A stretch of 31,536 nt of DNA, taken from positions 1-31,536 of the IMG/VR virus record IMGVR_UViG_3300044619_001363. The stretch is one strand, 5' to 3'. How positions within the stretch are numbered: position 1 is the stretch's first letter; each line of letters opens with the position of its first letter. The translations under genes were made by a program, and so were the position numbers. The stretch comes from a virus. Below, piece after piece: positions 960 through 26,614 of the stretch. The notes below the pieces were generated by a model. It had not been told where the DNA came from and did not search any database. It saw only the letters and a list, made by a program, of their open reading frames with translations.

Positions 960-962
960 AGA

Positions 963-14234: not shown

Positions 14235-14815
14235 TAATAAACCCATACGTGTATAAAAATCCAGTTTGTGTTCCGACAACTGGCGGTTCTTCATTAATAG
14301 CAAGTGGAACGACAAACGTTTTTGAAGCACCAGCCTATGGACTTTACAATTATTCATGGTCTTCTTTTATTTACACGGCTGGTTTAATTGGTGCGGCGCG
14401 TCAGATTACTGGAATTCAAATTGAAGTTAATGGTTATTCAACGCCTTACACCTTCAACAATCAAACAATAAAACTCGCGCATTTAGCACCAGCAACAACA
14501 ATTTTCGACACCGCACCAGCCATAAATTGGTCGGATATGCCAGTCAGTGACGTGACAATTGTAAAAGAATTCAACTGGATAATTACAGCGAACGGAATAA
14601 TTGACATAAATTTCGACACAAATTTTTGTTACAACGGAACTTCGAATTTAATTATCGGTTGGGAAAATCGTGACGGAACTTGGACTTCGGGGTATGGTTG
14701 GGGCGAAACAATAAGTTCTTCAAGTTCAGGCGCAATTGCTTTTCTTGACGCAAATTACCCAACTGGAAACGGAACAAGAATTTCAAACAGATTGAATTTA
14801 AGACTTAAATATTGA
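14231..14815 (+). CDS. Beta-rich virion surface protein, possible fibre accessory (194 aa)
   Basis: The product begins MIINPYVYKNPVCVPTTGGS, an opening style common in phage virion proteins. It continues as an aromatic, beta-rich domain (ITGIQIEVNGYSTPYTFNNQ, LIIGWENRDGTWTSGYGWGE), a composition typical of carbohydrate-facing or galactose-binding-like folds. It overlaps the fibre gene by four bases (ATGA), so it is coupled to it. It may be a fibre tip, adhesin or fibre chaperone. I cannot assign a family. Confidence 0.75.
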   Translation: MIINPYVYKNPVCVPTTGGSSLIASGTTNVFEAPAYGLYNYSWSSFIYTAGLIGAARQITGIQIEVNGYSTPYTFNNQTIKLAHLAPATTIFDTAPAINWSDMPVSDVTIVKEFNWIITANGIIDINFDTNFCYNGTSNLIIGWENRDGTWTSGYGWGETISSSSSGAIAFLDANYPTGNGTRISNRLNLRLKY

Positions 14816-14819
14816 TAAA

Positions 14820-15050
14820 ATGGTTGACAGACAAGCTTTGGTTGAAGAACTTGAACAATACGGAAACGTTGTTTTTTGCGACGAAAATTCTGAACTTTCT
14901 TATGTTGTTGTAATGTCAGATTGGACAGCTGACGAAGCTACATTCGAAGCAATTGCGAACATTTACATTGTTCCCGATTTTCCTGAAATGTCTGTTTTGA
15001 CATTGGTTGACGGCGTTTTAAAAGCACAATTCAACAAACAAAGAGTTTAA
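14820..15050 (+). CDS. Small acidic protein of the tail operon (76 aa)
   Basis: This acidic protein opens with a helix (MVDRQALVEELEQYGNVVF) followed by alternating strands (ELSYVVVMSDWTADEATFEA, MSVLTLVDGVLKAQF). The size and position after fibre genes would suit a fibre assembly chaperone, but that is inference. It starts four bases after the upstream stop and ends three bases before the next ATG. Codon use is native. Confidence 0.7.
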   Translation: MVDRQALVEELEQYGNVVFCDENSELSYVVVMSDWTADEATFEAIANIYIVPDFPEMSVLTLVDGVLKAQFNKQRV

Positions 15051-15053
15051 AAA

Positions 15054-16226
15054 ATGGCGTGTGATTGTTTAATAGTTACATTTCGTGAACAAGGTGCTTC
15101 AACACAAGTTTATGAACTGAATCCAGTCGGTCAATATTTGGGATTTGATTATTTCGAATTTCCATTCTTTAGCGGCGGCGGCGGTTTATTAACAATTTGG
15201 TACAACGAACCGACGAATCAATGGGTAATGACAAACGCTGGTGTTGGTTCTTTGAGCGGTGTTGTAGGTTATTTTGATAACGTTGACGAACCGCCTTGTG
15301 CGATTGGTGAATGGACAATCATTTCGCCAAAAATTGAACAATTTATTGTTGAAAAATGCGTTGAAGGTTGCACACCAGTTGAAGACAGAATTTTCAGACA
15401 ATACGCTTCGATCCGGTTGCCGCGTGTTTTTGAAGAAGAAGACCGAGGTTTTGCGCGTTGCTGTTGTGTTGTTCCAGTTCTTGCGTCAAGTTCTTCTGAC
15501 ACTTGGAAAAACGATAAAACTTCAGCGTGGATCAAATTATCTTCTTTGACTGACATTGCCGAAGCTAAACTTTATAAAGACGGAATTGAAACAACTTATT
15601 CACCGACGGCGGTTTCATTTGTGAATGAACCTTTTGCTTTTTACTGGACCATTAACTGGAACGACGTACTTAATTCTGACGGCGCTGGGTGTTACACCTT
15701 AAAAATAAGTTATGACATTTCAGGCGTTCAATTGACGTTTACATGGGGAATTTACGAACTGAAGCCATTCACGACAGAAACGGCAAATTTTACAGCGCGA
15801 GTTCGTGCATTTTACAACGATTACAACGAAGTCGAACAAATTGATTTTACGAATTCAATGGTCGAAGACAGCTGTCGTTTTTATGGGTTCATTGGTAACC
15901 GTCAACCGAACATGATAACAGATAACCTAATTTATCAAAATCGGGAAATGAAGAAAGTAATTCGTGAGAATTTGAACACTTACGAAATTATCACTGATCC
16001 AACTTGTGAAGGCATTATTCGAAAGCTGACGGACAATTTGCTTTTATCCGAAAATGAATTATTTTTGTCAGATTACAACGCGGCGAATCATTCGTACCGT
16101 TTTCAGGATTTACCAGCAATAGTTGAAAATTCACCTGAAATAACGTATTACGAAGGTTCACGCGAAGCGAGTTTGAAATGTGTGGCTGGGGACAAATTTA
16201 AAGACCAAAGAACGTATTACAGATAA
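15054..16226 (+). CDS. Cysteine-rich virion protein (390 aa)
   Basis: The protein is beta-rich and has many cysteines (MACDCLIVTF at the start, EKCVEGCTP, FARCCCVVP with three in a row, and later single Cys). That is unusual in a cytoplasmically assembled virion and hints at metal binding or a structural role. The N-terminal region has a Gly-rich loop FFSGGGGLLTIWYN. The C-terminal third is helical and ends near KCVAGDKFKDQRTYYR. It is the last gene of the tail module before lysis. It could be a tail-tip or fibre component. The family is not recognised. Confidence 0.74.
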   Translation: MACDCLIVTFREQGASTQVYELNPVGQYLGFDYFEFPFFSGGGGLLTIWYNEPTNQWVMTNAGVGSLSGVVGYFDNVDEPPCAIGEWTIISPKIEQFIVEKCVEGCTPVEDRIFRQYASIRLPRVFEEEDRGFARCCCVVPVLASSSSDTWKNDKTSAWIKLSSLTDIAEAKLYKDGIETTYSPTAVSFVNEPFAFYWTINWNDVLNSDGAGCYTLKISYDISGVQLTFTWGIYELKPFTTETANFTARVRAFYNDYNEVEQIDFTNSMVEDSCRFYGFIGNRQPNMITDNLIYQNREMKKVIRENLNTYEIITDPTCEGIIRKLTDNLLLSENELFLSDYNAANHSYRFQDLPAIVENSPEITYYEGSREASLKCVAGDKFKDQRTYYR

Positions 16227-16230
16227 AAGA

Positions 16231-16521
16231 ATGGACCAGTTAATTATTCCGATTTTTTCAGTTGTTTTTTCCATTATTGGATATTTTTTGAAGCAAGTTC
16301 ACAGCGACTTGAAAAAGGTCCGCGAAGACCTTCAGAAAGTAGTGACTGAAAACGGAAAGAATCGAGGTCGAATTGAACTCGTTGAACAAGAAAACCGTCT
16401 GAAGCTTCAAAGAATTGAAGAAGTCACGCAAAATGAAATCAAACATTTGGCTGAACAAGTAAATGAATTGACAACGCAAGTTCGTCGATTGATTGAACTG
16501 AACACACGACAAACTAATTAA
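16231..16521 (+). CDS. Membrane-anchored coiled-coil protein of the lysis cassette (96 aa)
   Basis: ATG 16231 follows the previous stop by four bases; a longer in-frame ORF from 16180 would overlap the upstream gene and is rejected. Residues 3-20 form one hydrophobic segment (LIIPIFSVVFSIIGYFL), followed by a charged coiled coil to the end (SDLKKVREDLQKVVTENGKN). This N-anchor plus long coiled coil next to a holin and endolysin resembles accessory lysis proteins such as holin-like or inner-membrane spanin-like proteins. The exact role is inferred from context. Confidence 0.75.
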   Translation: MDQLIIPIFSVVFSIIGYFLKQVHSDLKKVREDLQKVVTENGKNRGRIELVEQENRLKLQRIEEVTQNEIKHLAEQVNELTTQVRRLIELNTRQTN

Positions 16522-16523
16522 AT

Positions 16524-16736
16524 ATGAAAGAATTGAAAGAACGCTGGAATTCAAAGACACCTACATTTTGGAAAAAGGTCCAAAAAATTGGTGTCGCTTG
16601 TGGTATTGTTGGTGCGGCTATTGTCAGCGCTCCGATTGCATTACCAGCCGCTATTGTTTCAGTCAGTGGTTATTTGATTGTTGCCGGATCGTTGACAGCG
16701 GCTTTGTCACAACTTACAAAAGACGACAGCAAATGA
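16524..16736 (+). CDS. Putative holin (70 aa)
   Basis: This is a small, basic-ended protein with two hydrophobic segments, residues about 21-38 (KIGVACGIVGAAIVSAP) and 41-62 (PAAIVSVSGYLIVAGSLTAA), split by a short Pro-containing turn, and a short polar tail (SQLTKDDSK). Size, topology and position next to the endolysin gene fit a class II holin of Bacteroidetes phages, which would permeabilise the inner membrane at the end of infection. The stop overlaps the endolysin ATG (ATGA at 16733). Confidence 0.82.
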   Translation: MKELKERWNSKTPTFWKKVQKIGVACGIVGAAIVSAPIALPAAIVSVSGYLIVAGSLTAALSQLTKDDSK

Positions 16737-17182
16737 AGCTTTCCGAACACGTAACGATTAAAGAATTCGAAAGAAGTGATGTCGCTACGAATTACGGCAT
16801 TGACAACACAATGGATTCGTTTCAAATCGAAAGGGCAATTGACTTGTGTGAAAATGTCTTTGAACCGATTAGAAAGAAGGTAGGCGGTCCAATAAGAATC
16901 AACAGCGGTTATCGTTCACCAGCCGTGAATAAACGCGCTGGTGGCGCGAAGACAAGCCAACATTGCGCTTTGAATGGCGCGGCTATGGACCTGGATCTTC
17001 ACGACCGAGAATTGTTTGAATGGATAATTGCGAACGTTGAATTCGACCAAGCAATTTTTGAATTTGGAAATGACACAAAAGCGCTTTGGTTTCATTTGAG
17101 TTACAATAAAGGAAGAAACCGCCGTCAGGCTTTACGAGCAATCAAAAAAGCTGGAAAGACGGTTTACATTCCATTTGTTTAA
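16733..17182 (+). CDS. Endolysin, M15-type zinc peptidase (149 aa)
   Basis: This is a D-Ala-D-Ala carboxypeptidase-like (Peptidase M15) endolysin that cleaves peptidoglycan cross-links. IRINSGYRSPAVNKRAGG (residues about 55-71) is the typical strand and substrate loop. Zinc ligands are probably His77 (TSQH), Asp86 (AAMD) and His121 (WFHLSY). The usual SxHxxGxAxD spacing is two residues longer here (H-x4-G rather than H-x2-G). I chose ATG 16733 because it overlaps the holin stop (ATGA) and gives a full domain; a longer frame from 16568 would run antisense to sense with the holin. No signal peptide is present, consistent with export through the holin. Confidence 0.92.
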   Translation: MKLSEHVTIKEFERSDVATNYGIDNTMDSFQIERAIDLCENVFEPIRKKVGGPIRINSGYRSPAVNKRAGGAKTSQHCALNGAAMDLDLHDRELFEWIIANVEFDQAIFEFGNDTKALWFHLSYNKGRNRRQALRAIKKAGKTVYIPFV

Positions 17183-17183
17183 C

Positions 17184-17191
17184 TATCTTTG
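17184..17191 (+). promoter_or_regulatory. TAnnTTTG -7 box just after the endolysin gene (weak)
   Basis: TATCTTTG begins two bases after the endolysin stop. It would start a transcript of about 60 nt ending at the terminator 17231-17259, so a small RNA is possible. No TTG-type -33 element lies at the right distance. The 8-mer is frequent by chance in this AT-rich DNA, so confidence is low. Confidence 0.3.
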
Positions 17192-17230
17192 TTTAAGTCT
17201 TGCCAAGGACCAAGTAGATTTTTCAGTTTA

Positions 17231-17259
17231 AACCAATCCGTCAAAGGGTTGGTTTTTTT
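17231..17259 (+). terminator. Intrinsic terminator of the late (structural/lysis) operon
   Basis: AACCAATCC (17231-17239) pairs with GGGTTGGTT (17246-17254) through nine base pairs including one G-U, with a 6-base loop and a following T-run to 17259. It lies 49 bases after the endolysin stop and closes the late operon. Confidence 0.88.
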
Positions 17260-17262
17260 ATT

Positions 17263-17270
17263 TACCTTTG
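17263..17270 (+). promoter_or_regulatory. TAnnTTTG -7 box between two terminators (weak)
   Basis: TACCTTTG lies four bases after the late terminator and about 70 bases before a second terminator. If used, it would drive a short non-coding RNA of about 90 nt (17277-17363). No -33 element at a suitable distance is visible. Confidence 0.3.
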
Positions 17271-17279
17271 AAACGTTTT

Positions 17280-17307
17280 GTTCATAGTCTGAACCCAGTT
17301 GTTCAGA
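17280..17307 (+). ncRNA. Two mutually exclusive hairpins inside a possible small RNA
   Basis: TGAAC at 17290-17294 can pair with GTTCA at 17280-17284 (5 bp, 5-base loop). As part of TCTGAAC (17288-17294) it can instead pair with GTTCAGA (17301-17307; 7 bp, 6-base loop). The region is flanked by a TAnnTTTG box upstream and an intrinsic terminator downstream. No ORF of useful size is present. This is a candidate only. Confidence 0.35.
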
Positions 17308-17333
17308 ATAGTGTTTAATTGTTAGATACAAGG

Positions 17334-17363
17334 AAGCCGATTGATTTTGTCAGTCGGCTTTTT
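17334..17363 (+). terminator. Second intrinsic terminator in the control region
   Basis: AAGCCGATTGA (17334-17344) pairs with TCAGTCGGCTT (17350-17360) over eleven base pairs (one G-U) with a 5-base loop, followed by TTTG. It is the strongest hairpin of the region and lies only 75 bases after the previous terminator, so it either ends a separate small transcript or insulates the early operon. Confidence 0.88.
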
Positions 17364-17406
17364 GTTTCTCTCAAAAAAATAAATTAAAAAAAATTGTGTA
17401 AAAGTA

Positions 17407-17435
17407 TTGTGGATTAAAAAACTTGCGTATATTTG
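17407..17435 (+). promoter_or_regulatory. Early-operon promoter, Bacteroidetes type
   Basis: TTG (17407-17409) and TATATTTG (17428-17435) are separated by 18 bases, close to the Bacteroidetes -33/-7 arrangement (TTG, about 19 bases, TAnnTTTG). Transcription would begin near 17440, about 30 bases before the first early ORF (17471). This is one of the two best promoter matches in the window. Confidence 0.7.
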
Positions 17436-17470
17436 TAAGGTCAATAAGGCACAAAACAAAACACAATAAC

Positions 17471-17560
17471 ATGAAACAAAACACAAAATTTGAAATGACA
17501 GCGGCGCTTTTTGCTGGTTGTTTAGTTATCGGAATCACTCTTTATTTAGCAACAATTTAA
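17471..17560 (+). CDS. 29-aa single-pass membrane peptide
   Basis: ATG 17471 to TAA 17560 encodes MKQNTKFEM followed by a hydrophobic span (TAALFAGCLVIGITLYLATI). It is the first ORF after the early promoter, has an A/C-rich leader (CACAATAAC) like its neighbours, and uses native codons. Very small membrane peptides made first in infection often act on host envelope or superinfection processes, but no function can be assigned here. Confidence 0.6.
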   Translation: MKQNTKFEMTAALFAGCLVIGITLYLATI

Positions 17561-17572
17561 ACACGAAACAAA

Positions 17573-17785
17573 ATGAAAAATCTAACTTCAAACGAACAAT
17601 TATTACTGGACAATATCATTTTCGTAAAAGATTTGATCCAGGCTAAAATCAACGGATTCGAAAAAGGAATCGAAATTTTAGGTGACGACATTACTGAAGA
17701 AGTAAAATCGAAAGCTGAATTTGCAATTTATGAACTCAAAGATTTGAAAAAACACGTTGAAAATATCATTCCGTCAAAAAACTAA
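17573..17785 (+). CDS. Small early protein, helical (70 aa)
   Basis: The protein is helical with LTSNEQLLLDNIIFVKDLIQ and FAIYELKDLKKHVENIIPSK. It lies second in the early operon with an ACAAA leader before ATG. No family is recognised. It resembles its downstream neighbour in character (acidic/basic helical early protein with a KDL..K..E motif), so the two may be functionally linked. Confidence 0.68.
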   Translation: MKNLTSNEQLLLDNIIFVKDLIQAKINGFEKGIEILGDDITEEVKSKAEFAIYELKDLKKHVENIIPSKN

Positions 17786-17796
17786 ATTTAAACACC

Positions 17797-18129
17797 ATGA
17801 AAACAAAACACCAAGTAGTTCAATTTATCGTTGACCTTTCTGAAGAAAACGAAAATCTGACAAAAAGCGTTCTCGGTAATGCTGTCGTTGAAAGCGCAAA
17901 ACGTGCGTTAAATTCAAAACCTGACGTAAAGACCTTAAAAATTGTAGCTGAAAGTATTCTGTTCATTTCAAAATGTATTGAAGACCTTGAAAAAGAACTT
18001 TGTGAAATGAAAGCGCACAACGATAAAAAAGGAATTCTTTTCGAATATCGCGACCAAGATATTCAAGGCGTTGAACGATTGATTCGAAAATATTACGAAA
18101 GTCTAAACAAAGTAATTCGCGAAATATGA
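17797..18129 (+). CDS. Small early protein, helical (110 aa)
   Basis: This mostly helical protein (VVQFIVDLSEENENLTKSVL, LKIVAESILFISKCIEDLEK) ends in a long helix (DIQGVERLIRKYYESLNKVI). It has two cysteines and no recognised motif. Its TGA (18127-18129) overlaps the next ATG (18126), so translation is coupled. It is probably an early host-takeover or regulatory protein, by position only. Confidence 0.7.
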   Translation: MKTKHQVVQFIVDLSEENENLTKSVLGNAVVESAKRALNSKPDVKTLKIVAESILFISKCIEDLEKELCEMKAHNDKKGILFEYRDQDIQGVERLIRKYYESLNKVIREI

Positions 18130-18284
18130 AAACCAAAACCAAAAAACAAAATACATTCTTTCCGCTTCCAGTTCCAGTTTTGAGAATGGCGCGTTGGTGG
18201 AAGGAAAAAAGCTTTTCACATGATAAAGGCGGTTCGTTTAATGTCGAACACTATTTGAAAGTACAAAACGCAAGATTCGAATAA
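18126..18284 (+). CDS. Small basic early protein (52 aa)
   Basis: ATG 18126 overlaps the preceding stop (ATGA) and TAA ends at 18284. The product starts with a highly basic tail (MKTKTKKQNTFF), then a Pro-rich PLPVPVLRMARWWKEKSF and an aromatic C-terminus. The ATGA junction upstream and the ATG one base downstream (18286) argue that it is a real gene. The basic Trp-rich character suggests nucleic-acid or protein binding; no family is recognised. Confidence 0.62.
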   Translation: MKTKTKKQNTFFPLPVPVLRMARWWKEKSFSHDKGGSFNVEHYLKVQNARFE

Positions 18285-18285
18285 T

Positions 18286-18723
18286 ATGAACACAGAAAAA
18301 AAGCAAGACTTGCGAACTCGGTTTCACATTGACAAATTGCGAGAATTCTTTCCTGAAAACTATTGTTTTGATCCGAACAACGTTTTGAAAATTTGCCCTT
18401 TCACGTTGACCGAAATTCGAATGACAACAAGAAAAAAAGAGGTTGTTCAATGGCGACAAATTTTGATTGCGTTCAAATACGCTTCAGGATCAACTTTCGA
18501 AGCCGCTGGTCAATTTGTCGGAAACAAGGACCATTCAACGTGCGTTCACTCTTTAAAAAAAGTAATCAACGCGCTGGAAGGATATGACAGCGCAATGAAA
18601 TTAAAGATTGACGAAATAGTTGCTGGAACAGAAAGATTTTTTTACGCAACTGACGACCATACAAAAAACGAAGTTAACGCTTTGCGTCTTATGGAACAGC
18701 AAATCAGTAAATTTTTAAATTGA
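18286..18723 (+). CDS. DnaA domain IV (DNA-binding) protein lacking the AAA+ domain (145 aa)
   Basis: Residues about 47-112 match the C-terminal DNA-binding domain of DnaA. A basic helix (TTRKKEVVQWRQILIAFKYA) is followed by a helix-turn-helix and the signature GNKDHSTCVHSLKKV (79-93), compare GRDHSTVxHAxxKI in DnaA. The AAA+ and domain I parts are missing. The protein could bind DnaA-box-like sites to recruit or block host DnaA, direct phage origin melting, or regulate early genes. The C-terminal 35 residues are a charged helix. Similar stand-alone DnaA_C proteins occur in Bacteroidetes phages. Confidence 0.85.
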   Translation: MNTEKKQDLRTRFHIDKLREFFPENYCFDPNNVLKICPFTLTEIRMTTRKKEVVQWRQILIAFKYASGSTFEAAGQFVGNKDHSTCVHSLKKVINALEGYDSAMKLKIDEIVAGTERFFYATDDHTKNEVNALRLMEQQISKFLN

Positions 18724-18727
18724 AGCA

Positions 18728-18964
18728 ATGAATCAAAAACCGAGAAAAAAAGTAACGCTTGAAGTTGAATTCAATTCGTTCAATGAACTTCAGTTTGTAT
18801 TGAATAAAGTTCTTGGAATGGCAAAGAATCACCAGCAAAGCGAACGTCAGGCAATAGCTGGATCAATTTACGAATATACGTTCGAAATCATTCCTGACGA
18901 ATCCAATTATCGAGTTGAAATAATCAACGGAAAGCGTTGTTTAGTAATCAAATCAAAACTTTAA
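18728..18964 (+). CDS. Small early protein (78 aa)
   Basis: The fold looks alpha/beta: a beta strand after a basic tail (KKVTLEVEFNSFNELQFVLN), a helix (LGMAKNHQQSERQA), then strands (IYEYTFEIIPDESNYRVEII). It starts four bases after the DnaA-like gene and is probably cotranscribed with it. No family is recognised. Confidence 0.68.
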   Translation: MNQKPRKKVTLEVEFNSFNELQFVLNKVLGMAKNHQQSERQAIAGSIYEYTFEIIPDESNYRVEIINGKRCLVIKSKL

Positions 18965-18975
18965 AATCACTAAAA

Positions 18976-19266
18976 ATGACAACAAAAACAGCAATCTTTA
19001 CATCTGAAAGAAAGGAACGGTTTAGAACGATTCCTTCACAAGTTCAATACATTCCAGTCGGAATGGATTTGAACGATTACGAAATTGTCGGATATTTGAA
19101 TGGCGAACGCTTGGACAAATGCGCAACGCTTTCAATTGAACACTTCGGAACGGTTCAACATATTACGTCAAGCCAAAACGCGATTAACGGAAAACAATTC
19201 GAACATTTTGTCGGACACAATCACCAAAGCAAACGTTTCACGATTTTTGTAATGAAAAAGAAATGA
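18976..19266 (+). CDS. Small early protein upstream of the methyltransferase (96 aa)
   Basis: I chose ATG 18976 (leader CACTAAAA) over an in-frame ATG at 18937 that lies inside the upstream gene. The protein is beta-rich with a His-rich C-terminal half (IEHFGTVQHITSSQ, FEHFVGHNHQSKRFTIFV). Its TGA overlaps the methyltransferase ATG (ATGA at 19263), so it is translationally coupled to it. It may be an accessory of the modification enzyme or a DNA mimic/anti-restriction protein, but nothing proves this. Confidence 0.68.
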   Translation: MTTKTAIFTSERKERFRTIPSQVQYIPVGMDLNDYEIVGYLNGERLDKCATLSIEHFGTVQHITSSQNAINGKQFEHFVGHNHQSKRFTIFVMKKK

Positions 19267-20426
19267 AAGATCCAGGTTCAAAAATCAAAGTTGGTTCAGA
19301 CTTCAGCGGCGTTGGCGCGTTCAACCAAGCATTGAACCGTTTGGGAATTAATTACGAAGAAATTTTTGCTTGTGACCGTGACAAGTATGCGCGTCAAACA
19401 TTCGTTCACAATTACGGCGAACCGAAATATTTCCCGACAGACGTTTATGAACGTCAAATTCCAGCTGAATCACTTGACGTTTATATGACTTCGCCGCCTT
19501 GTCAAGCTTTTTCAATGGCTGGTCGTCGTTTGGGAAAAGAAGACAAACGCGGAATTCTATTTTTTAACTCGCTTGAATTCATTCAGGAAAACAAACCGCG
19601 CTTCTTTATTTTTGAAAACGTCAAAGGTCTTTTGTCAGATAACAGCGGAAAAACTTTTCAAGAATGGATCAACTTTCTTGGTGGCAAATCTGTGAACGGT
19701 TTGCCAGTTTTATTTCCATTCGAAGACTCGGTTGATTATCATTTGTACTGGAGCGTTTTAAATGCAAAAGAACACGGTGTTCCACAAAACCGCGAACGCG
19801 TTTTTTTGGTTGGCATTCGTGACGACATTGACAACAATTTTCGCTTTCCAAAGGAAGAACATTTGACAAAACGATTGAAAGACGTTCTTGAAGAAAACGT
19901 TGACAAAAAGTATTTTTTAAGTGAAAAGTTAATTAATGGTTTTTTATTTAAAGAAAATGAAATCGAATGTGAGAATAAATCTTGTTTTAAAATTAAATCG
20001 AACAATTCCAAAGGTTACGAAATTGCTGAAATCGGCGACAGCATAAGACTTGCACACCCAAACAGCGAAACAAGTCGAGGAAGAATTTGTAAGGAAGTAA
20101 GCCACACTTTGGATTGCGGATCAAATGAAGGTATTATATTGAATAAATATCAAAAAGAAATTGAAAAATCAATTGAACAAGAAATTTGTACAACGCTTGA
20201 CGCGAGTTATTACAAAGGATTTGGAATACGACAAGGCAATTGTCGACAAGTTGTAAATGATAATTTTTCAATTCGACGACTTACACCTCGCGAATGTTTC
20301 CGATTAATGGATTTTCCTGATATGTTTGATTTTTCAGTTGTAAGTGATTCACAAGCGTATAAACAAGCTGGTAATTCAATCGTTGTCAATGTGCTTTTCA
20401 AGATACTCAAAAACTTAAATTTATGA
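19263..20426 (+). CDS. DNA cytosine-5 methyltransferase (387 aa)
   Basis: The enzyme transfers a methyl group from S-adenosylmethionine to cytosine C5. All key motifs are present: I DFSGVGAF (13-20, AdoMet loop), IV SPPCQAFS (77-84, catalytic Cys80), VI FENVKGL (117-123), VIII PQNRERVFLVGI (174-185), IX IRRLTPRECFRLMDFPD (337-353) and X YKQAGNSI (366-373). Residues about 200-335 form the target recognition domain. There is no restriction enzyme next to it, so it acts as an orphan. Word use in the genome (GATC, CCGG and CCWGG present only within GGATC/GATCC) suggests it recognises GGATC/GATCC; this is inference. Its stop overlaps the VRR-NUC start by four bases. Confidence 0.96.
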   Translation: MKDPGSKIKVGSDFSGVGAFNQALNRLGINYEEIFACDRDKYARQTFVHNYGEPKYFPTDVYERQIPAESLDVYMTSPPCQAFSMAGRRLGKEDKRGILFFNSLEFIQENKPRFFIFENVKGLLSDNSGKTFQEWINFLGGKSVNGLPVLFPFEDSVDYHLYWSVLNAKEHGVPQNRERVFLVGIRDDIDNNFRFPKEEHLTKRLKDVLEENVDKKYFLSEKLINGFLFKENEIECENKSCFKIKSNNSKGYEIAEIGDSIRLAHPNSETSRGRICKEVSHTLDCGSNEGIILNKYQKEIEKSIEQEICTTLDASYYKGFGIRQGNCRQVVNDNFSIRRLTPRECFRLMDFPDMFDFSVVSDSQAYKQAGNSIVVNVLFKILKNLNL

Positions 20427-20809
20427 AAAATCAACCTGAATTTGAACTTCAAAAGGCTGTGTGTAACTACTTAAATATTCAATACAAAGAAGTTTTATAT
20501 TTGAGCGACACGATTGCGAATTTACATTTGACAATTCCGCAACGTGTCAGGAATTCTTCGATTCAGAAACGCGGTTTTCATTGTCCGGATCTTTTGATTC
20601 TGAAACCGAATAACCGATTCAGCGGTTTGTTTATTGAGTTGAAAGCAAAATCACCTTTCAAGAAAGACGGTTGTCTTTTGAAATCGGAACATTTGGCAAA
20701 TCAACAACACACTATTGACCAGTTGAATCGACTTGGATATTACGCAACTTTTTCAGTTGGGTTTGAAGACACGAAAAAAATAATTGACGAATACATGGCA
20801 TTCAAATAA
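20423..20809 (+). CDS. VRR-NUC family nuclease (128 aa)
   Basis: This is a PD-(D/E)xK nuclease of the VRR-NUC type, with motif CPDLLIL (residues 51-57) followed by the catalytic GLFIELKAK (69-77). The conserved helix LANQQHTIDQLNRLGYYATF and the YATFSVGFEDT..II.EY end follow. Stand-alone phage VRR-NUC proteins are usually Holliday-junction or branched-DNA nucleases, used in replication or recombination. It overlaps the methyltransferase stop by four bases, so the two are made together. The alternative, a restriction partner, is less likely because the family is structure-specific. Confidence 0.88.
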   Translation: MKNQPEFELQKAVCNYLNIQYKEVLYLSDTIANLHLTIPQRVRNSSIQKRGFHCPDLLILKPNNRFSGLFIELKAKSPFKKDGCLLKSEHLANQQHTIDQLNRLGYYATFSVGFEDTKKIIDEYMAFK

Positions 20810-20813
20810 ATTG

Positions 20814-20821
20814 TATTTTTG
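20814..20821 (+). promoter_or_regulatory. TAnnTTTG -7 box in front of the structured RNA
   Basis: TATTTTTG lies five bases after the VRR-NUC stop. Transcription would start near 20826-20829, just at the start of the structured leader. No TTG is found at the -33 distance (the nearest is about 27 bases upstream). The case rests on the box plus its position before a terminator-bounded RNA. Confidence 0.4.
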
Positions 20822-20823
20822 TG

Positions 20824-20922
20824 CAAATGGTTCAGGTCTCACGTTATATGAACTTTAAAAAATTATTGCCCAATCATTTGAAAGCGACGTGAGACCCGCG
20901 AGTAGAATGGTTGGGTTTTTTA
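20824..20922 (+). ncRNA. Pseudoknotted leader / ncRNA with competing pairings and terminator
   Basis: Three pairings are visible. Stem S1: GGTCTCACGT (20835-20844) with ACGTGAGACC (20887-20896), ten perfect pairs. P2: CCCAATCATT (20869-20878), in the loop of S1, with AATGGTTGGG (20906-20915), ten pairs with one G-U, followed by TTTTTT; with S1 this is an H-type pseudoknot and acts like a terminator. P3: CAAATGGTT (20824-20832) with AATCATTTG (20872-20880), nine pairs with one G-U, which excludes P2. Mutually exclusive P2/P3 is the layout of an attenuator. It lies directly before the replication gene (ATG 20936). There is no ORF inside. I do not recognise a known RNA family. Confidence 0.75.
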
Positions 20923-20935
20923 TTTATTTTTTATC

Positions 20936-21733
20936 ATGGCAACTGGAAAAAACAAAGTAATTGTTTACGCGGATTGGATTAGCTTATTTGATAAATTGAC
21001 AAATGAAGAAGCTGGAAAGCTAATAAAACACTTTTTCAATTACGTCAATGACATGAATCCAGTTTGTGAAGACAGATTGATTGAATTATTATTTGAACCA
21101 ATCAAAGCAACTTTAAAACGTGACCTTCAAAAATGGGAAGAAAAAACTGACGTGAATCGTGAAAATGGAAGGAAAGGCGGTCGACCAAAAAAAACCGAAC
21201 AAAACCCAAATAAACCGAACGGTTTTTTTGAAACCCAAAATAACCCAAAAAAAGGCGTTAGTGATAGTGTAAGTGATAGTGTAAGTGATAGTGTAAGTGA
21301 TAGTGTTAATGTAAATGATAGTATTTCTTTTAAAAAAGAAACAAAATTTATATTTAAAGCTGAACTTTTGAAATTAAATTCCGACGAACAACTGGTCGAC
21401 GAATGGCTTTCGATCCGGAAATTCAAGAAGGCAAGAAACACCGAAACTTCATTCAAGGCATTTGTAAGGGAATTAATGAAATCAAAATTACCAGTGAATG
21501 AAGTTTTAAGAATTTGCGTCGAAAGAAGCTGGTCAGGATTTGACGCGACCTGGATCAACAACATAAAAAACAACAACAATGCAAACACACAACAACCAAT
21601 TAGCAACGAAGAACGAAGAAGAAGCTATCTTGAAAGAGTTCTTCACGGAAATAATGAACCAATTGACAGCCAAAGGTCACACAATGGCGAGGATAACAGC
21701 GCCTTTGATGTTGTCGAAATCGTCGAAAGTTGA
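20936..21733 (+). CDS. Putative replication initiator / replisome organiser (265 aa)
   Basis: The N-terminal domain (residues 1-75, VIVYADWISLFDKLTNEEAG through LIKHFFNYVNDMNP) is typical of Bacteroidetes-phage proteins found in replication modules and resembles phage replisome organisers. A basic linker (NGRKGGRPKKTEQNPNKP) is followed by a repeat tract (SDSVSDSVSDSVSDSV) encoded by 12-bp DNA iterons, then a C-terminal helical domain (ELLKLNSDEQLVDEWLSIRK) that may load helicase. The layout, with iterons plus an AT-rich stretch inside the initiator gene, resembles lambda O and its origin. The next gene starts within its last 155 bases in another frame. Confidence 0.75.
   Translation: MATGKNKVIVYADWISLFDKLTNEEAGKLIKHFFNYVNDMNPVCEDRLIELLFEPIKATLKRDLQKWEEKTDVNRENGRKGGRPKKTEQNPNKPNGFFETQNNPKKGVSDSVSDSVSDSVSDSVNVNDSISFKKETKFIFKAELLKLNSDEQLVDEWLSIRKFKKARNTETSFKAFVRELMKSKLPVNEVLRICVERSWSGFDATWINNIKNNNNANTQQPISNEERRRSYLERVLHGNNEPIDSQRSHNGEDNSAFDVVEIVES
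21258..21358 (+). repeat. 12-bp iterons plus AT-rich palindrome: candidate replication origin
   Basis: Unit TAAGTGATAGTG is present four times head to tail: 21258-21269 (one mismatch), 21270-21281, 21282-21293 and 21294-21305. A fifth degenerate copy is at 21312-21323 after a 6-base spacer. An AT-rich region follows directly (21324-21358), containing the palindrome TTTCTTTT-AA-AAAAGAAA. Repeats followed by an AT-rich unwinding region inside an initiator gene is the classic phage origin design. Confidence 0.65.
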
Positions 21734-22337
21734 AGAATCGCGTGAAGAATGCATTCGAATATTGATTTCCAGTTGTGAAATATTGTTCGGTCTTCGCGCT
21801 GAAAATCTTTCACCTGAACTTTGGAACATTTCATTTGCGTCGATTTGCGAACGTTTCGTCGGCATAACGATAACAGACATTCAAAACGCTTTCAGATACG
21901 CTGTAATCGAAAAAAAAGCCTATCAAACGCTAACGCGCGACGAATTGCTTGAACCGATTTCACAATATTGGAAGAATAAAGTGATTTTGCTGAATGAAAT
22001 CGACGTAATTCGACGCAAAAATGAAGAAGAATTGAACTCGATCCGATTGGAACAAAAATTTCGCGAAGAATCAAAGAAAATTTATTTGGAATCATTGACC
22101 GTTGGAAGCTGGAAAGGCGACGAATTTCAGGCTGACGCAATTGCTCGGAACTTTGCCGAATGTTTTTCGCAAGAAGACAAAAATGAATTCATGAGTTTGG
22201 CGAAAATGGAATTCGCACGACGAAAAAAAGCCGCTGAAGGAAATCAATTTGAACTTGTTCCGAGTTGGCAAAAGATTTTTTCGCGCATTTACGTTGAAAA
22301 TTGCATTCAGAAACGAATCAAATTTGTAAATACATGA
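21579..22337 (+). CDS. Putative replication-module protein (252 aa)
   Basis: The protein is helical throughout, with a central domain (ELWNISFASICERFVGITIT, then DIQNAFRYA) and a charged helix (KNKVILLNEIDVIRRKNEEE). No Walker motifs are visible, so it is not a complete helicase or loader ATPase. The start is uncertain: ATG 21579 has a good leader (AAAACAACAACA) but overlaps the upstream gene by 155 bases. In-frame ATGs at 21654, 21684 and 21708 would shorten the overlap. It is coupled to the PP-loop gene downstream by an ATGA overlap at 22334. The role in replication is inferred from its neighbours. Confidence 0.68.
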   Translation: MQTHNNQLATKNEEEAILKEFFTEIMNQLTAKGHTMARITAPLMLSKSSKVEESREECIRILISSCEILFGLRAENLSPELWNISFASICERFVGITITDIQNAFRYAVIEKKAYQTLTRDELLEPISQYWKNKVILLNEIDVIRRKNEEELNSIRLEQKFREESKKIYLESLTVGSWKGDEFQADAIARNFAECFSQEDKNEFMSLAKMEFARRKKAAEGNQFELVPSWQKIFSRIYVENCIQKRIKFVNT

Positions 22338-23167
22338 CCACAATAAACAGCATTTCAGGCGGAAAAACTTCAGCATTTATTGCCGCAAATTATCCAGCCG
22401 ATTACAATTTATTTTCACTCGTAAGAACTGACGACAAAAATTGTTTGTTTCCTGACATGAAAATTCGTCAAATTGTAAGTGACAAAATCGGTCGTGAATT
22501 CATTGGAACACTTGAAGAAGATACAATTATTTATACAATGTTAGACCTTGAACAATTTATCGGATCAAAAATAACTTGGTTAAGCGACAAAACTTTTGAA
22601 GAAGTAATTAATGAACATTCAAAATATTTACCGAATGTAATGACAAGATATTGCACGGTTGATATGAAAATAAAACCGATTGCCCAGTGGTGTTATGAAA
22701 ATACAGATTTACCAGTTGAAATGCGAATCGGTTTTCGTGCGAATGAAATGAACCGCGCAAAAAATATGCTTGAAAGACAAATAAACGGTGTTGAAAATTT
22801 CAAATTTCAGGTATCTGAAAAAAATGGAAGAAAGAAATGGAAGGAATTACCGTACAGAATTGTCAATTTTCCTTTAATTACTGACGCTATTTTTAAAGAT
22901 AAAATTGAAAATTTTTGGATTGATAAACCAGTTCGATTTGCATACAGAAATAATTGTGTCGGGTGCTTCCATAGAAACGAAATTATGTTGAAGCACATGA
23001 GCGAAAAAGCTGAAAAGCAATTTAATTGGTTTATTGAACAAGAACAAAAAAACGGCTCAACGTTTAAGAAGGGAATTACTTACGAAAAAATTAAAAAACA
23101 TAAACTTCAATTGGATCTTTTCGATTCAGATTTTCAAGATTGTGATTCAGGATTTTGCGGTTTATGA
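22334..23167 (+). CDS. PAPS-reductase-like PP-loop protein (277 aa)
   Basis: ATG 22334 overlaps the previous stop and starts MTTINSISGGKTSAFIAANY, with the PP-loop SGGKTS at residues 8-13, the ATP-pyrophosphate-binding signature of PAPS reductase / DndC-type enzymes. RYCTVDMKIKPIAQW (residues about 111-125) matches the family's R-x-C-T..KI.P segment. Cysteines in NNCVGCFHRNE and the C-terminal CDSGFCGL could hold an iron-sulfur cluster. Phage members are common but their substrate is unknown. Sulfur or nucleotide modification chemistry, such as DNA or tRNA thiolation, is a reasonable guess. An in-frame ATG at 22301 is inside the previous gene and is rejected. Confidence 0.88.
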   Translation: MTTINSISGGKTSAFIAANYPADYNLFSLVRTDDKNCLFPDMKIRQIVSDKIGREFIGTLEEDTIIYTMLDLEQFIGSKITWLSDKTFEEVINEHSKYLPNVMTRYCTVDMKIKPIAQWCYENTDLPVEMRIGFRANEMNRAKNMLERQINGVENFKFQVSEKNGRKKWKELPYRIVNFPLITDAIFKDKIENFWIDKPVRFAYRNNCVGCFHRNEIMLKHMSEKAEKQFNWFIEQEQKNGSTFKKGITYEKIKKHKLQLDLFDSDFQDCDSGFCGL

Positions 23168-23186
23168 AAAAAAAGTAAAGAAATTA

Positions 23187-23216
23187 TTTGTAATTAATTA
23201 AAAAGAATTATCTTCG
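23187..23216 (+). promoter_or_regulatory. Promoter of the recombination operon
   Basis: TTTG (23187-23190) and TATCTTCG (23209-23216; one mismatch to TAnnTTTG) are separated by 18 bases in the only gap (23168-23240) of this region. The first ATG follows 24 bases later at 23241. Spacing and both boxes fit Bacteroidetes promoters. Confidence 0.62.
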
Positions 23217-23240
23217 CTGAAACAATTAACACAAAACAAA

Positions 23241-23591
23241 ATGAATTCAATGACACTTCAAGAACTTAAAGTTTGGCTTTCAACAAACAAAAATCTGTTG
23301 AAAGGTTTGAACATTCGCGTGACGACGGCAAGAACGTCAACGCCATTCAACACGTTAAAAGCTTTCGGTGAATATATTCTTCGCCTTGAAAAAGAAAATT
23401 ACACCAGCGCGAGAATAGGCGGTTTTCATTACGCGAAAAATCCTTTTCAGCAGTCATTCAATAACGACCATATTGAAAAACTTTCAGCTGGAAACATTTC
23501 AGGAATTGAAATTTCTGTTGGCGGCGGTTTGACAAAATCACAAGCGTCAAATCTTGCACGTCACAAGACACAAAAACTTCGAAACAGATAA
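23241..23591 (+). CDS. Protein of unknown function ahead of RecT (116 aa)
   Basis: The N-terminal helices (MTLQELKVWLSTNKNLLKGL) are followed by NIRVTTARTSTPFNTLKAFG and a Gly-rich basic C-terminus (ISVGGGLTKSQASNLARHKT, then RNR). It is the first gene after the promoter 23187-23216 and 31 bases before recT. A link to recombination, for example as a single-strand DNA accessory, is suggested by position only. It contains one of only three GCAG words in the genome (23450-23453). Confidence 0.72.
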   Translation: MNSMTLQELKVWLSTNKNLLKGLNIRVTTARTSTPFNTLKAFGEYILRLEKENYTSARIGGFHYAKNPFQQSFNNDHIEKLSAGNISGIEISVGGGLTKSQASNLARHKTQKLRNR

Positions 23592-23622
23592 CTAAAATTT
23601 TTAACAACCAAAAATCACAAAA

Positions 23623-24447
23623 ATGTCAAATTTAACAATCAAATCAATCTTTGAAAAAGACGCGGTGAAATCTAAGATGAACGAACTTCTTGGAAGCCGC
23701 GCGAGTGGATTCGTGACTTCAGTTCTTCAAGTTACGTCGAACAATGCGCTTTTATCCAAAGCTGAACCGATGTCGGTATACAATGCCGCAATGACAGCCG
23801 CCGCGCTTGACCTTCCAATCAATCAAAATCTTGGTTTTGCTTGGATCGTTCCGTACAAAGGTCAAGCCCAGTTTCAAATGGGTTGGAAAGGATACGTTCA
23901 ACTTGCTCAAAGAACTGGTCAATACAGCCGAATAAATGTCGTGAAAGTTTACGAAAACCAGTTCAAAGGGTTCAGCGCATTACATGAAGAACTTGACGCT
24001 GACTTTAATCTTGCTCCTGAAGGTCAGGTTGTAGGTTATGCGGCTTACTTTAAATTGATAAACGGATTCGAAAAAACGACGTACTGGTCAAAAGACCAAG
24101 CCGCCGAACATGGAAAACGTTTTTCGCAAACGTTTAACAACGGTCCATGGAAGTCAGACTTTGACGCTATGGCAATGAAATCTTTATTGAAACACACGCT
24201 TTCGAAATGGGGTATTTTATCAATTGAAATTCAGAAAGCAAACATTGCTGACCAAGCTGTGATTAATGACTTTGAAACGAATGACGTTGACTACGTTGAC
24301 GCTGGTGAAGCTTTGCCAACAATGTCAATTTCTGACCTTGAAAAAGCACAATCTGAAATAAAAGCTGGAAATACAACCGTCGAAAATATTTCAATGATTT
24401 TTGACCTGACTGACGAACAACTTAATGAACTTGAAAATGAAAACTAA
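23623..24447 (+). CDS. recT: RecT family single-strand annealing protein (274 aa)
   Basis: This recombinase binds single-stranded DNA left by an exonuclease and anneals it to a complementary strand. Family features: an early conserved segment (SNNALLSKAEPMSVYNAAMT, residues about 39-58), AALDLPINQNLGFAWIVPYK (60-79), FQMGWKGYVQLAQRTGQY, and YWSKDQAAEHGKRFS with a W.S.F..MA.KT..K-like end (NGPWKSDFDAMAMKSLLKHT). The acidic C-terminal tail (about 230-274) is typical. The next gene, a PD-(D/E)xK-like exonuclease, begins inside its last codons. Confidence 0.95.
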   Translation: MSNLTIKSIFEKDAVKSKMNELLGSRASGFVTSVLQVTSNNALLSKAEPMSVYNAAMTAAALDLPINQNLGFAWIVPYKGQAQFQMGWKGYVQLAQRTGQYSRINVVKVYENQFKGFSALHEELDADFNLAPEGQVVGYAAYFKLINGFEKTTYWSKDQAAEHGKRFSQTFNNGPWKSDFDAMAMKSLLKHTLSKWGILSIEIQKANIADQAVINDFETNDVDYVDAGEALPTMSISDLEKAQSEIKAGNTTVENISMIFDLTDEQLNELENEN

Positions 24448-25324
24448 AAAATTTCGCTGTTCTTCATTCGGTCGTTTAATGACTGGCGCGGTGCTTCCAA
24501 CCGCGTCACGTCTGACCGAAGCGCAACAAAAAGAACTTTCAACACTATTGGAAAAAATAAAGCTGACGGATATCCAAGCCAAAAAACGCGACGAATTGAT
24601 TTCAAAACGTGACACGCCAGTTCAACCGAAACTTTCTGAAGGTGCGAAAACGTATATTGAAGAAGAATTTTTAAAAGACCGTTTTGATTACGGTTTCAGA
24701 TTCACAAATCGATTCGTTGAAAAAGGAAAGGAAGTTGAAGAACGTTCGATTCGTCAAGTAGGCGCGTTTCTCGGTTATCCGTTTGCAACAAAAGCGCCTG
24801 AAAAATATCTTGAAAACGATTTCATTTGTTCTTCGGGTTACGATTGGAAAGTAAAGAAATTTGTTTTCGACCAAAAAAATGTTTGGTCACCTTCAGGATT
24901 GAAGCTTTTTGAAAATGACAAAGACATTGCGGTTTATGAGTGGCAAATTCGCGGTTACGCAATGCTAATAAATGAACTTGAAAACGAATCAATTGAAGCT
25001 GGTGCGGTCATTCGAACCTTAATGAATCCTTCAGCTGAACTAATTTTTAAACAAGCACGTCTTCTTTGGGTTGAAGCTGGGAATAATTACAATGACGAAA
25101 TACCTGAATCGTTTCTTCTTGAAGTTGAAAAGGAATTCGATTTCGAAGGTAAGTTTCCAAACATTGCCGACAGAATGAAAATTCACCGAGTTGAATGCAC
25201 ACAAGAACACTTTGATTTGATTAAGGTATACGTCAAACTCGCGCAAGATTATTACAATTCGCTTGAATCAATCTGTTCGAATGTCAACGATAATGCAATA
25301 AATTTTTTCAGAAATGCGAATTAA
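24437..25324 (+). CDS. Putative YqaJ/RecE-like exonuclease, RecT partner (295 aa)
   Basis: This protein is probably the 5'-3' exonuclease that supplies single strands to RecT. FVEKGKEVEERSIRQVGAFL (residues about 92-111) fits the conserved helix with G..VE, FICSSGYDWKV and FVFDQKNVWS could hold the catalytic Asp and Lys, and VYEWQIRGYAMLIN matches the Y..Q..GYM helix of YqaJ-like enzymes. The canonical E-x-K is not clear (DQK instead), so the active site is tentative. I prefer ATG 24437; ATG 24425 is only four codons longer and overlaps RecT more. Confidence 0.8.
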   Translation: MKTKKFRCSSFGRLMTGAVLPTASRLTEAQQKELSTLLEKIKLTDIQAKKRDELISKRDTPVQPKLSEGAKTYIEEEFLKDRFDYGFRFTNRFVEKGKEVEERSIRQVGAFLGYPFATKAPEKYLENDFICSSGYDWKVKKFVFDQKNVWSPSGLKLFENDKDIAVYEWQIRGYAMLINELENESIEAGAVIRTLMNPSAELIFKQARLLWVEAGNNYNDEIPESFLLEVEKEFDFEGKFPNIADRMKIHRVECTQEHFDLIKVYVKLAQDYYNSLESICSNVNDNAINFFRNAN

Positions 25325-25547
25325 CGAACAAACCAAACTTGAAAAAGACTTCATTGAACGCGTCAACAAATTTTCGGCGCGTTCAGGAATGTCACCAGCT
25401 TCTTTAATGAGAGAAATCGGAAATATGAATTCGAAAAAATTCAAAGATTTTCTTGAAGGAACTGGATCGATAAATTCCCGAACAATGGGTTTAATCACTG
25501 AAATAATTGACAACCATGAAAAAAAGAAGTCACCGAAAAGAAAATGA
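25314..25547 (+). CDS. Small HTH-like DNA-binding protein (77 aa)
   Basis: The product carries an XRE-like helix-turn-helix pattern: FIERVNKFSARSGMSPASLM, then REIGNMNSKKFKDFLEGTGS and a C-terminal helix ending KKKSPKRK. It would suit a Cro-like or transcriptional switch protein, and it is the only phage repressor-sized HTH in the window. It overlaps the exonuclease gene by 11 bases, and a further small ORF starts within its end. No CI-type repressor is present, so it is more likely a timing regulator than a lysogeny switch. Confidence 0.7.
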   Translation: MRINEQTKLEKDFIERVNKFSARSGMSPASLMREIGNMNSKKFKDFLEGTGSINSRTMGLITEIIDNHEKKKSPKRK

Positions 25548-25668
25548 TTTTCTTCATTTGAGTTACCGACGTTTTCGAAGGTCAACAGACTGGGTTCGGA
25601 AATGGATATTTTCAGCCGACGTTCATTTTCCGCATTATCAATTTGAACGATTAAACCCTGAAGAATGA
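25516..25668 (+). CDS. Small basic protein (50 aa)
   Basis: ATG 25516 lies inside the end of the HTH gene and TGA ends at 25668. The product is basic and aromatic (MKKRSHRKENDFLHLSYRRF, then RRSTDWVRKWIFSADVHFPH). It is coupled to its neighbours: a 32-base overlap upstream and an ATGA overlap (25665) downstream. Codon use (CGA, GAA, TTT) looks native. The family is unknown; nucleic-acid binding is possible from charge. Confidence 0.55.
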   Translation: MKKRSHRKENDFLHLSYRRFRRSTDWVRKWIFSADVHFPHYQFERLNPEE

Positions 25669-25739
25669 AATTAGCATTCAAAATAATTATTCACGCCCTC
25701 GCAATTTTTGGCGTGTTGCATTTAATATTTAACTTTTAA
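25665..25739 (+). CDS. 24-aa hydrophobic peptide
   Basis: ATG 25665 overlaps the previous stop (ATGA) and TAA ends at 25739. The product, MKLAFKIIIHALAIFGVLHL then IFNF, is one short membrane helix with a basic N-terminus. The coupled start is the main support. The function is unknown; small phage membrane peptides can act in superinfection exclusion. Confidence 0.45.
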   Translation: MKLAFKIIIHALAIFGVLHLIFNF

Positions 25740-25750
25740 AACAGAATAGA

Positions 25751-25975
25751 ATGAAAACAGCAGTAGAATGGTTGAGAAACCAAATTGAAGAAGATAGTGA
25801 CACTACTTTCCATAACCTTAATTGGGATAGGTTTGATGAGTTAATTGAACAAGCCAAAGAAATGGAAAAAGAGCAGATAATAGAGTCCTACTCAAGCGGA
25901 TATACAGACTCTTCAAATGAATATAGATTTAACAGAGAGTATTATAGTACAAAATATACTTTAAAATCAGAGTAA
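25751..25975 (+). CDS. Small MKTAVEW family protein, probably acquired recently (74 aa)
   Basis: The product starts MKTAVEWLRNQIEEDSDTTF and has FDELIEQAKEMEKEQIIESY, the hallmark pattern of a small protein common in Flavobacteriia phages and prophages. Its function is unknown. Base and codon use differ from the neighbours: GAG four times, CAG, AGG and two ATA in 74 codons, where the rest of the genome favours GAA, CAA and CGA. It holds two of the three GCAG words of the whole genome (25760 and 25873). Both observations suggest recent horizontal transfer. Confidence 0.78.
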   Translation: MKTAVEWLRNQIEEDSDTTFHNLNWDRFDELIEQAKEMEKEQIIESYSSGYTDSSNEYRFNREYYSTKYTLKSE

Positions 25976-25976
25976 G

Positions 25977-26237
25977 ATGAAAAAAATTGTATTTGAACTT
26001 TTATTCTTCACTTTTTGGTGTTTTGTCTTCATTATTTTGATGTTTAAATTGATCCGAAGCTGTGAAAAAGAACACAGAAAACTTGAACTTGAATCAAATC
26101 GAAAAACTCAAAAAACTCAAATTGAACACAAAAAGTTTAAATTTGAAGAACCGAATGACTGGTTTGAAGACAAATCAATCAGTCAACGAAAACTTGAAAC
26201 AATTGACAGAATTTTTGAATTTAAACCCATTGATTAA
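25977..26237 (+). CDS. Single-pass membrane protein with charged tail (86 aa)
   Basis: The N-terminal hydrophobic segment (residues about 4-27, VFELLFFTFWCFVFIILMFK) is followed by a charged helical tail (CEKEHRKLELESNRKTQKTQ, then IEHKKFKFEEPNDWFEDKSI). Another ORF in a different frame overlaps its C-terminal part and continues to 26325. The nested pair recalls overlapping spanin genes, but the partner has no lipobox, so this is not strong. The topology is uncertain because basic residues flank the membrane segment on both sides. Confidence 0.62.
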   Translation: MKKIVFELLFFTFWCFVFIILMFKLIRSCEKEHRKLELESNRKTQKTQIEHKKFKFEEPNDWFEDKSISQRKLETIDRIFEFKPID

Positions 26238-26594: not shown

Positions 26595-26614
26595 ATATTC
26601 AATTTTTTTCAATC

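What the first reader, a model, noticed from the sequence alone, without database searches (positions are those of the whole stretch)
19263..20426. Predicted specificity of the phage C5 methyltransferase: GGATC/GATCC
In GATCC the fourth base (C) is the last C of GATC and also the first C of an overlapping CCGG or CCWGG; the fifth base is the second C of those words. One m5C mark in GATCC could therefore shield all three words. GGCC cannot overlap GATCC in this way, and GGCC is entirely missing. The one modification gene in the genome is a complete C5 methyltransferase, so the word pattern gives a direct guess at its target. Such an asymmetric 5-bp m5C specificity in an orphan phage enzyme would be unusual.
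Basis: inference. Interest (0 to 1): 0.92.

Follow-up and report, generated by a model that had tools for sequence, protein, structure and literature searches.

The report
Phage methylase probably marking GATCC sites
This virus of bacteria has purged several DNA words that bacterial cutting enzymes attack, except where they overlap the five-letter word GATCC, and it carries a DNA-methylating enzyme built from swappable recognition cassettes, one of which goes with the same GATCC exemption in two unrelated viruses; several close relatives without the enzyme keep the pattern, so the link is likely but not proven.

Summary
The word pattern is real and extreme. All 54 GATC are inside GGATC/GATCC (a synonymous-codon null gives 42 outside), as are all 14 CCGG and all 10 CCWGG; GGCC is absent. 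GATCC itself is not depleted. The ORF at 19263-20426 is a complete C5 methyltransferase. Its variable region holds at least two recognition cassettes from a phage enzyme family that shuffles such cassettes, like the multispecific Bacillus phage enzymes. One cassette ('KYQ', residues 294-331) recurs in two unrelated phages with the same rule: G014 (25 of 26 GATC inside GATCC) and G026, whose enzyme has only this cassette (23 of 24). No KYQ-negative methylase phage outside the window's own family (57 contigs) shows the rule. The gene is probably ancestral and recently lost or swapped in those relatives, so they weaken the claim without refuting it. GATCC remains the best guess for the target (about 0.55). 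Host-supplied protection is the main rival. An excess of GATCCGG and GATCCWGG is unexplained.

The parts
19263..20426 (+). orphan C5 methyltransferase gene, 387 aa, ATG start, stop codon included
   Evidence: TIGR00675 dcm 3.8e-71
19293..19322 (+). motif I region, GSDFSGVGAF, residues 11-20
   Evidence: invariant columns; position computed from residue number
19491..19505 (+). motif IV catalytic loop SPPCQ, residues 77-81
   Evidence: aligns with M.HhaI PCQ
19614..19622 (+). motif VI ENV, residues 118-120
19785..19799 (+). motif VIII QNRER, residues 175-179
19995..20132 (+). recognition cassette C, residues 245-290 (KSNNSKGYEIAEIGDSIRLAHPNSETSRGRICKEVSHTLDCGSNEG)
   Evidence: shared with L002, L003, L004
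20142..20255 (+). recognition cassette KYQ, residues 294-331 (NKYQKEIEKSIEQEICTTLDASYYKGFGIRQGNCRQVV), the candidate GATCC reader
20274..20378 (+). motifs IX and X, RRLTPRECFRLMDFPD to QAYKQAGNS, residues 338-372
18979..19266 (+). conserved upstream neighbour of the methylase locus
   Evidence: directly abuts the downstream neighbour in L209 and L211, which lack the methylase
20423..20809 (+). conserved downstream neighbour, VRR-NUC / resolvase-like small protein; also present in relatives without the methylase, so not a cognate restriction enzyme
585..30980 (.). 54 GATC sites spread over the genome (first at 585, last at 30977), every one inside GATCC or GGATC
2955..29810 (.). 14 CCGG sites (2955 to 29807), every one as GATCCGG or CCGGATC
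1484..28243 (.). 10 CCWGG sites (1484 to 28239), every one as GATCCWGG or CCWGGATC

Best explanation
The gene makes an orphan phage C5 methyltransferase whose recognition region is a tandem of swappable cassettes. The KYQ cassette most likely directs methylation of GATCC, probably at the first C of its CC on the GATCC strand, because that is the one base shared with overlapping GATC, CCGG and CCWGG. Marked sites are spared by host restriction enzymes, so the phage keeps those words only in GATCC and has lost them elsewhere by selection; GGCC cannot be shielded and is gone. Shown: the word pattern, the exemption of GATCC, the cassette architecture (by sequence) and the co-occurrence of KYQ with the rule in unrelated phages. 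Inferred: the enzyme's activity, its target, the base marked and the identity of the host enzymes. The gene sits at a locus that is exchanged or lost quickly, so genome-wide word content lags behind gene content.
For: Pattern far beyond synonymous and dinucleotide nulls. GATCC at about neutral frequency while other GATC are absent: 54 inside vs 37 expected, 0 outside vs 72 expected; similar in G001, G003, G008 and G034. G014 shares no other gene with the window at E<1e-8 and has 25 of 26 GATC in GATCC. G026, whose 323-aa enzyme has KYQ as its only cassette, has 23 of 24. G028 and G031 (KYQ) show partial exemption. None of 57 KYQ-negative methylase contigs outside the window's family passes p<1e-6, against 4 of 15 KYQ-positive (Fisher p 0.0013); one of those four, G033, shows enrichment only. 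GATC-avoiding phages without a C5 enzyme mostly avoid GATCC too (G011 0 vs 27 expected, L055 0 vs 12, L068 0 vs 14). Window versus a 96%-identical relative without the enzyme: plain GATCC kept at 25 of 28 covered sites, but GATCCWGG at 0 of 8; that relative has no CCWGG.
Against: Close relatives without the enzyme keep the GATC rule: G008 0 of 37 outside, G034+G004 0 of 43, G007 0 of 12, G009 1 of 16; in G034+G004 all 10 CCGG are also in GATCC. G003 and G002 carry the enzyme without KYQ and keep the rule. KYQ phage G029 keeps GATC only in GATCTGG, and L129, L131 and G027 show no GATCC rule. Over all KYQ-positive vs negative lineages the GATCC log-odds does not differ (p 0.24); the association rests on the strict cases. 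KYQ was picked as the candidate after looking at these data. G008 holds two GATCCWGG sites without the enzyme. Excess GATCCGG and GATCCWGG is unexplained. No methylation data.
Confidence: 0.55

Rival explanations
1. GATCC is protected by something other than this gene, most simply a methylase of the usual host (for example a resident GGATC/GATCC enzyme), and the phage enzyme has another target. Phages grown in that host would carry marked GATCC whatever genes they hold.
For: Four close relatives without the C5 enzyme keep the rule. G003 and G002 keep it without KYQ. No other modification gene is recognisably shared by all family members: the N6/N4 methylase is in G034 and G001 only, and the PAPS-reductase-like gene region is missing from the alignments to G001, G003, G008 and G004.
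Against: The rule also appears in two phages unrelated to the window that share only the methylase, both with KYQ. Unrelated GATC-avoiding phages without a C5 enzyme do not spare GATCC, though their hosts are unknown. An adenine mark would not by itself shield the adjoining CCGG and CCWGG.
Confidence: 0.25
2. The GATCC reader is cassette C, or the pair C plus KYQ, rather than KYQ alone.
For: C is the only cassette shared by all four methylases of the window's family; G014 has a C-like cassette too.
Against: G026 has the rule with KYQ alone. Phages with C-like cassettes and no KYQ lack the rule: L176 9 of 12 outside, L190 11 of 11 outside, L108 84 of 167 outside.
Confidence: 0.1
3. The host restriction enzymes themselves do not cut GATC, CCGG or CCWGG next to GATCC context, so no phage modification is needed.
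For: Would explain why relatives without the enzyme keep the rule.
Against: Three different words would all have to be spared in the same context, and such flank exclusion is not a usual property of Type II enzymes (general knowledge). Other GATC-avoiding phages avoid GATCC too.
Confidence: 0.06
4. GATCC(A)GG is a positively selected functional motif (protein-binding or packaging signal) and the avoidance of near-matches follows from that.
For: GATCCGG and GATCCWGG exceed even the conditional null, and many window copies arose by several changes at one site relative to G008.
Against: Only 24 of 56 GATCC are followed by GG or WGG. Positions turn over quickly: only 2 of 21 covered GATCCGG/GATCCWGG are shared with the 96%-identical relative. 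GATC and CCGG avoidance alone is typical of restriction.
Confidence: 0.04

Closest known systems
Multispecific C5 methyltransferases of Bacillus phages (SPbeta, SPR, phi3T, H2)
   Same: One C5 catalytic core with several target recognition domains in tandem in one polypeptide, used by phages against several restriction systems (reviewed in PMC12707154; PMC8936443).
   Different: Here short cassettes are shuffled in many combinations among environmental phages; the inferred target is the asymmetric GATCC, whereas PMC8936443 states that the multiple targets of the Bacillus phage enzymes are fully methylated sites. No specificity was measured here.
M.BatI, orphan prophage C5 methyltransferase of Bacillus anthracis (GCDGC)
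   Same: Orphan, phage-borne C5 enzyme that marks one class of its sites on one strand only (PMC8936443).
   Different: M.BatI has a single, short recognition domain, and its target differs.
Methyltransferases of lactococcal 936-type phages (M.Phi93DAM and others)
   Same: Phage-encoded orphan enzymes shown to protect against restriction, GATC included (PMC4190342).
   Different: Different enzymes: M.Phi93DAM is an adenine methylase that marks GATC regardless of flank.
Restriction-site avoidance in prokaryotic viruses
   Same: Recognition sites of Type II systems, GATC among them, are commonly avoided (PMC6286503).
   Different: Here avoidance is absolute except in one flanking context; a word search of that paper found no use of 'overlap' or 'orphan'.

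Membership tests
DNA (cytosine-5) methyltransferase (PF00145) | conserved motifs I, IV (PCQ), VI (ENV), VIII (QxRxR), IX and X in order | tested here: met
   PF00145 E 1.3e-67; alignment to M.HhaI; invariant columns
DNA (cytosine-5) methyltransferase (PF00145) | transfers a methyl group to C5 of cytosine in DNA | not testable with these tools
   needs expression or methylome data
Multispecific multi-TRD phage C5 methyltransferases | two or more recognition domains in tandem between motifs VIII and IX of one polypeptide | tested here: met
   by sequence only: cassettes C and KYQ both present; cassettes occur in other combinations and KYQ alone in G026. The structure model is uninformative here (residues 211-337 below 50 pLDDT)
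Multispecific multi-TRD phage C5 methyltransferases | each recognition domain gives its own methylated target | not testable with these tools
   only an inference (GATCC for KYQ) is available
Orphan phage methyltransferase | no cognate restriction enzyme next to it | tested here: met
   neighbours are a small conserved protein and a resolvase-like nuclease that is also present in relatives without the methylase
GATCC-specific C5 methyltransferase (this proposal) | GATCC exempt from avoidance where the enzyme is carried and not where it is absent | tested here: inconclusive
   exempt in carriers of three unrelated lineages, mostly not exempt in unrelated GATC-avoiding phages without a C5 enzyme, but exempt in close relatives without the enzyme
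Dcm-type CCWGG or HpaII-type CCGG methyltransferase | CCWGG or CCGG tolerated in all contexts | tested here: not met
   both words absent outside GATCC in the window; an inference from words, not an assay

The most novel reading that the evidence does not exclude
Environmental phages trade short recognition cassettes on a common C5 methylase core, and a cassette can leave a readable trace in the genome: an otherwise forbidden restriction word survives only in one extended context (GATCC with KYQ here; GATCTGG in G029 and GATCG in L190/L191 are cases not yet assigned to a cassette). KYQ would be an asymmetric m5C reader of GATCC, unreported in what I could search, and such traces would let specificities be read from genomes without methylomes.
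Probability: 0.35. Interest if true: 0.78.

Novelty: new variant of a known kind. Interest (0 to 1): 0.6.

Why it matters
That would give a sequence-only way to assign targets to the recognition cassettes of m5C enzymes in uncultured phages, and a natural collection of swappable cassettes on one scaffold, including a single-cassette enzyme that can be tested directly. It would also be an unusual asymmetric 5-bp m5C target in an orphan enzyme that shields three restriction words with one mark.

Tried and rejected
Chance: rejected by two nulls. Cassette C as the GATCC reader: disfavoured by phages with C-like cassettes and no rule, and by G026. Decoding other cassettes by comparing 4- and 5-mer frequencies between carriers and non-carriers: exploratory, dominated by base composition and host, nothing reliable. 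Simple presence/absence of words such as GCGC against cassettes: no consistent link seen in the table. Excess of GATCCGG and GATCCWGG as an artefact of banning other words: explains part, not all. Structure prediction of the recognition region: too low confidence, so no fold search was run. Finding the enzyme in bacterial genomes: no relative in one genome-contig scan. KYQ cassette in named phages: no match. A published GATCC/GGATC-specific C5 enzyme: two text searches found none that I recognised as such; REBASE could not be consulted and the one hit was not read.

Full report
Observation. The window is a virus record of 31,536 bases with a 30-base repeat joining its two ends. The ORF 19263-20426 is a complete C5 methyltransferase. 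All 54 GATC lie in GATCC/GGATC, all 14 CCGG are GATCCGG/CCGGATC, all 10 CCWGG are GATCCWGG/CCWGGATC, and GGCC is absent. In 300 synonymous-codon shuffles GATC outside the context averaged 42 (minimum 28) and CCGG outside averaged 39 (minimum 25). GATCC itself is not depleted: 54 GATC inside against 37 expected from composition, while 72 would be expected outside. The genome also avoids many other words, so it is under heavy and varied word selection, most simply from several restriction systems.

The enzyme family. Relatives from IMG/VR share a near-constant catalytic core but differ in the stretch between motifs VIII and IX, which is assembled from short cassettes in many combinations. This resembles the tandem recognition domains of Bacillus phage enzymes (PMC12707154, PMC8936443). 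The window has two recognisable cassettes, C (residues 245-290) and KYQ (294-331). G001 (L002) has a third plus C plus KYQ; G003 (L004) and G002 (L003) have C but not KYQ. The structure model was not confident in this region.

Independent test across phages. Searching with each cassette separately gave 46 KYQ loci and 23 C-like loci. G014 shares only the methylase with the window and has 25 of 26 GATC inside GATCC. G026 carries a 323-aa enzyme with KYQ as its only cassette and has 23 of 24 inside. L130 has 8 of 9 on a short contig. G028 and G031 show partial exemption. KYQ carriers that do not follow the rule are G027, where GATC is not avoided, L129 and L131, and G029, which follows a different rule. 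Counting the window lineage once, 4 of 15 KYQ-positive and 0 of 57 KYQ-negative contigs pass p<1e-6 (Fisher p 0.0013); one of the four, G033, is only enriched. The rank test over all lineages is not significant (p 0.24), as could happen if the rule shows only where hosts cut GATC. KYQ was chosen after seeing the data, so these p-values are optimistic. Phages that avoid GATC and have no C5 enzyme mostly avoid GATCC as well (G011 0 against 27 expected, L055 0 against 12, L060 0 against 8, L068 0 against 14).

Evidence against, from close relatives. G008 (31.3 kb, 96.4% identical to G001 and G003) has a GNAT gene in place of the methylase between the same neighbours, yet 0 of 37 GATC outside GATCC. 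G034, about 96% identical to the window, has nothing between those neighbours, and with G004 from the same metagenome shows 0 of 43 GATC and 0 of 10 CCGG outside GATCC; the two contigs differ by 2.4% where they overlap, so they may not be one genome. G007 lacks the gene at the locus with 0 of 12 GATC outside, and G009 has another ORF there with 1 of 16 outside. I read it as recent loss or exchange: the gene's divergence between window and G001 (84%) matches that of the genome (83%), its place and neighbours are the same, and the locus varies between relatives. But four such tips, all still clean, is uncomfortable, and host-supplied protection of GATCC is the natural alternative.

A natural comparison. 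Between the window (with enzyme) and G034/G004 (without), plain GATCC sites are kept at 25 of 28 covered positions, as expected from 96% identity (random 5-mers 83%). GATCCWGG is kept at 0 of 8 and GATCCGG at 2 of 13 (random 7- and 8-mers 79% and 76%). The relative without the enzyme has no CCWGG, which fits loss of protection for that word, but it has its own GATCCGG, and G008 has two GATCCWGG, so the evidence is mixed.

An unexplained excess. With the avoided words banned in a codon-swap simulation, GATCCGG should number 5.2 +/- 1.4 and GATCCWGG 2.7 +/- 1.1; there are 14 and 10. Many window copies replace quite different sequence in G008. Possibilities are preferential methylation of GATCC followed by RG, or a selected motif; neither is tested.

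Mechanism. For one mark to shield all three words it must lie on the GATCC strand at the first C of the CC: the next C is not in GATC, and the C of the opposite GGATC strand is not in CCGG or CCWGG. GGCC cannot contain that base. In most overlaps only one strand of the restriction word would be marked; whether the host enzymes respect that is unknown.

Verdict. Observation confirmed. Interpretation partly supported: GATCC is the best guess for the target of one of at least two cassettes, at about 0.55. The decisive test is the methylome of the expressed window and G026 enzymes.

Noticed in passing
G029 = IMGVR_UViG_3300024581_000905 (L134, L201, L202): All 42 GATC are GATCTGG/CCAGATC (0.9 expected), and 42 of 65 CCAG are in CCAGATC: a second, different protected context in a phage with KYQ and another cassette.
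   Followed up: partly
L190 and L191: All GATC (11 of 11 and 8 of 8) lie in GATCG/CGATC, a third kind of context rule (read from the lists).
   Followed up: no
window, whole genome: CTCC/GGAG is strongly avoided and all 17 survivors are GCTCC; G008, G001 and G003 have nearly none.
   Followed up: partly
window, G001, G003, G008, G026: CAGG occurs almost only as TCAGG (61 of 63 in G001, 65 of 69 in G008; in G026 all 60), with ACAGG and GCAGG absent or nearly so.
   Followed up: no
L096:3052-3612 (G008): A GNAT acetyltransferase replaces the methylase at the same locus; a modification role is possible but untested; no match in named phages.
   Followed up: partly
L219:1612-2247 (G034) and L098:19281-19907 (G001): N6/N4 DNA methylase (PF01555) with a variable middle part, inserted upstream of the C5 locus in two relatives, absent from the window.
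   Followed up: partly
window 22334-23167: PAPS-reductase-like gene (phrog_424, 1.8e-21; no Pfam hit) in a region missing from the alignments to G001, G003, G008 and G004.
   Followed up: no
window vs G008: Large lineage-specific word changes, e.g. ACCGT 30 vs 1, ATGTTG 24 vs 1, TATAA 11 vs 57 in aligned DNA, suggesting rapid turnover of word selection.
   Followed up: no
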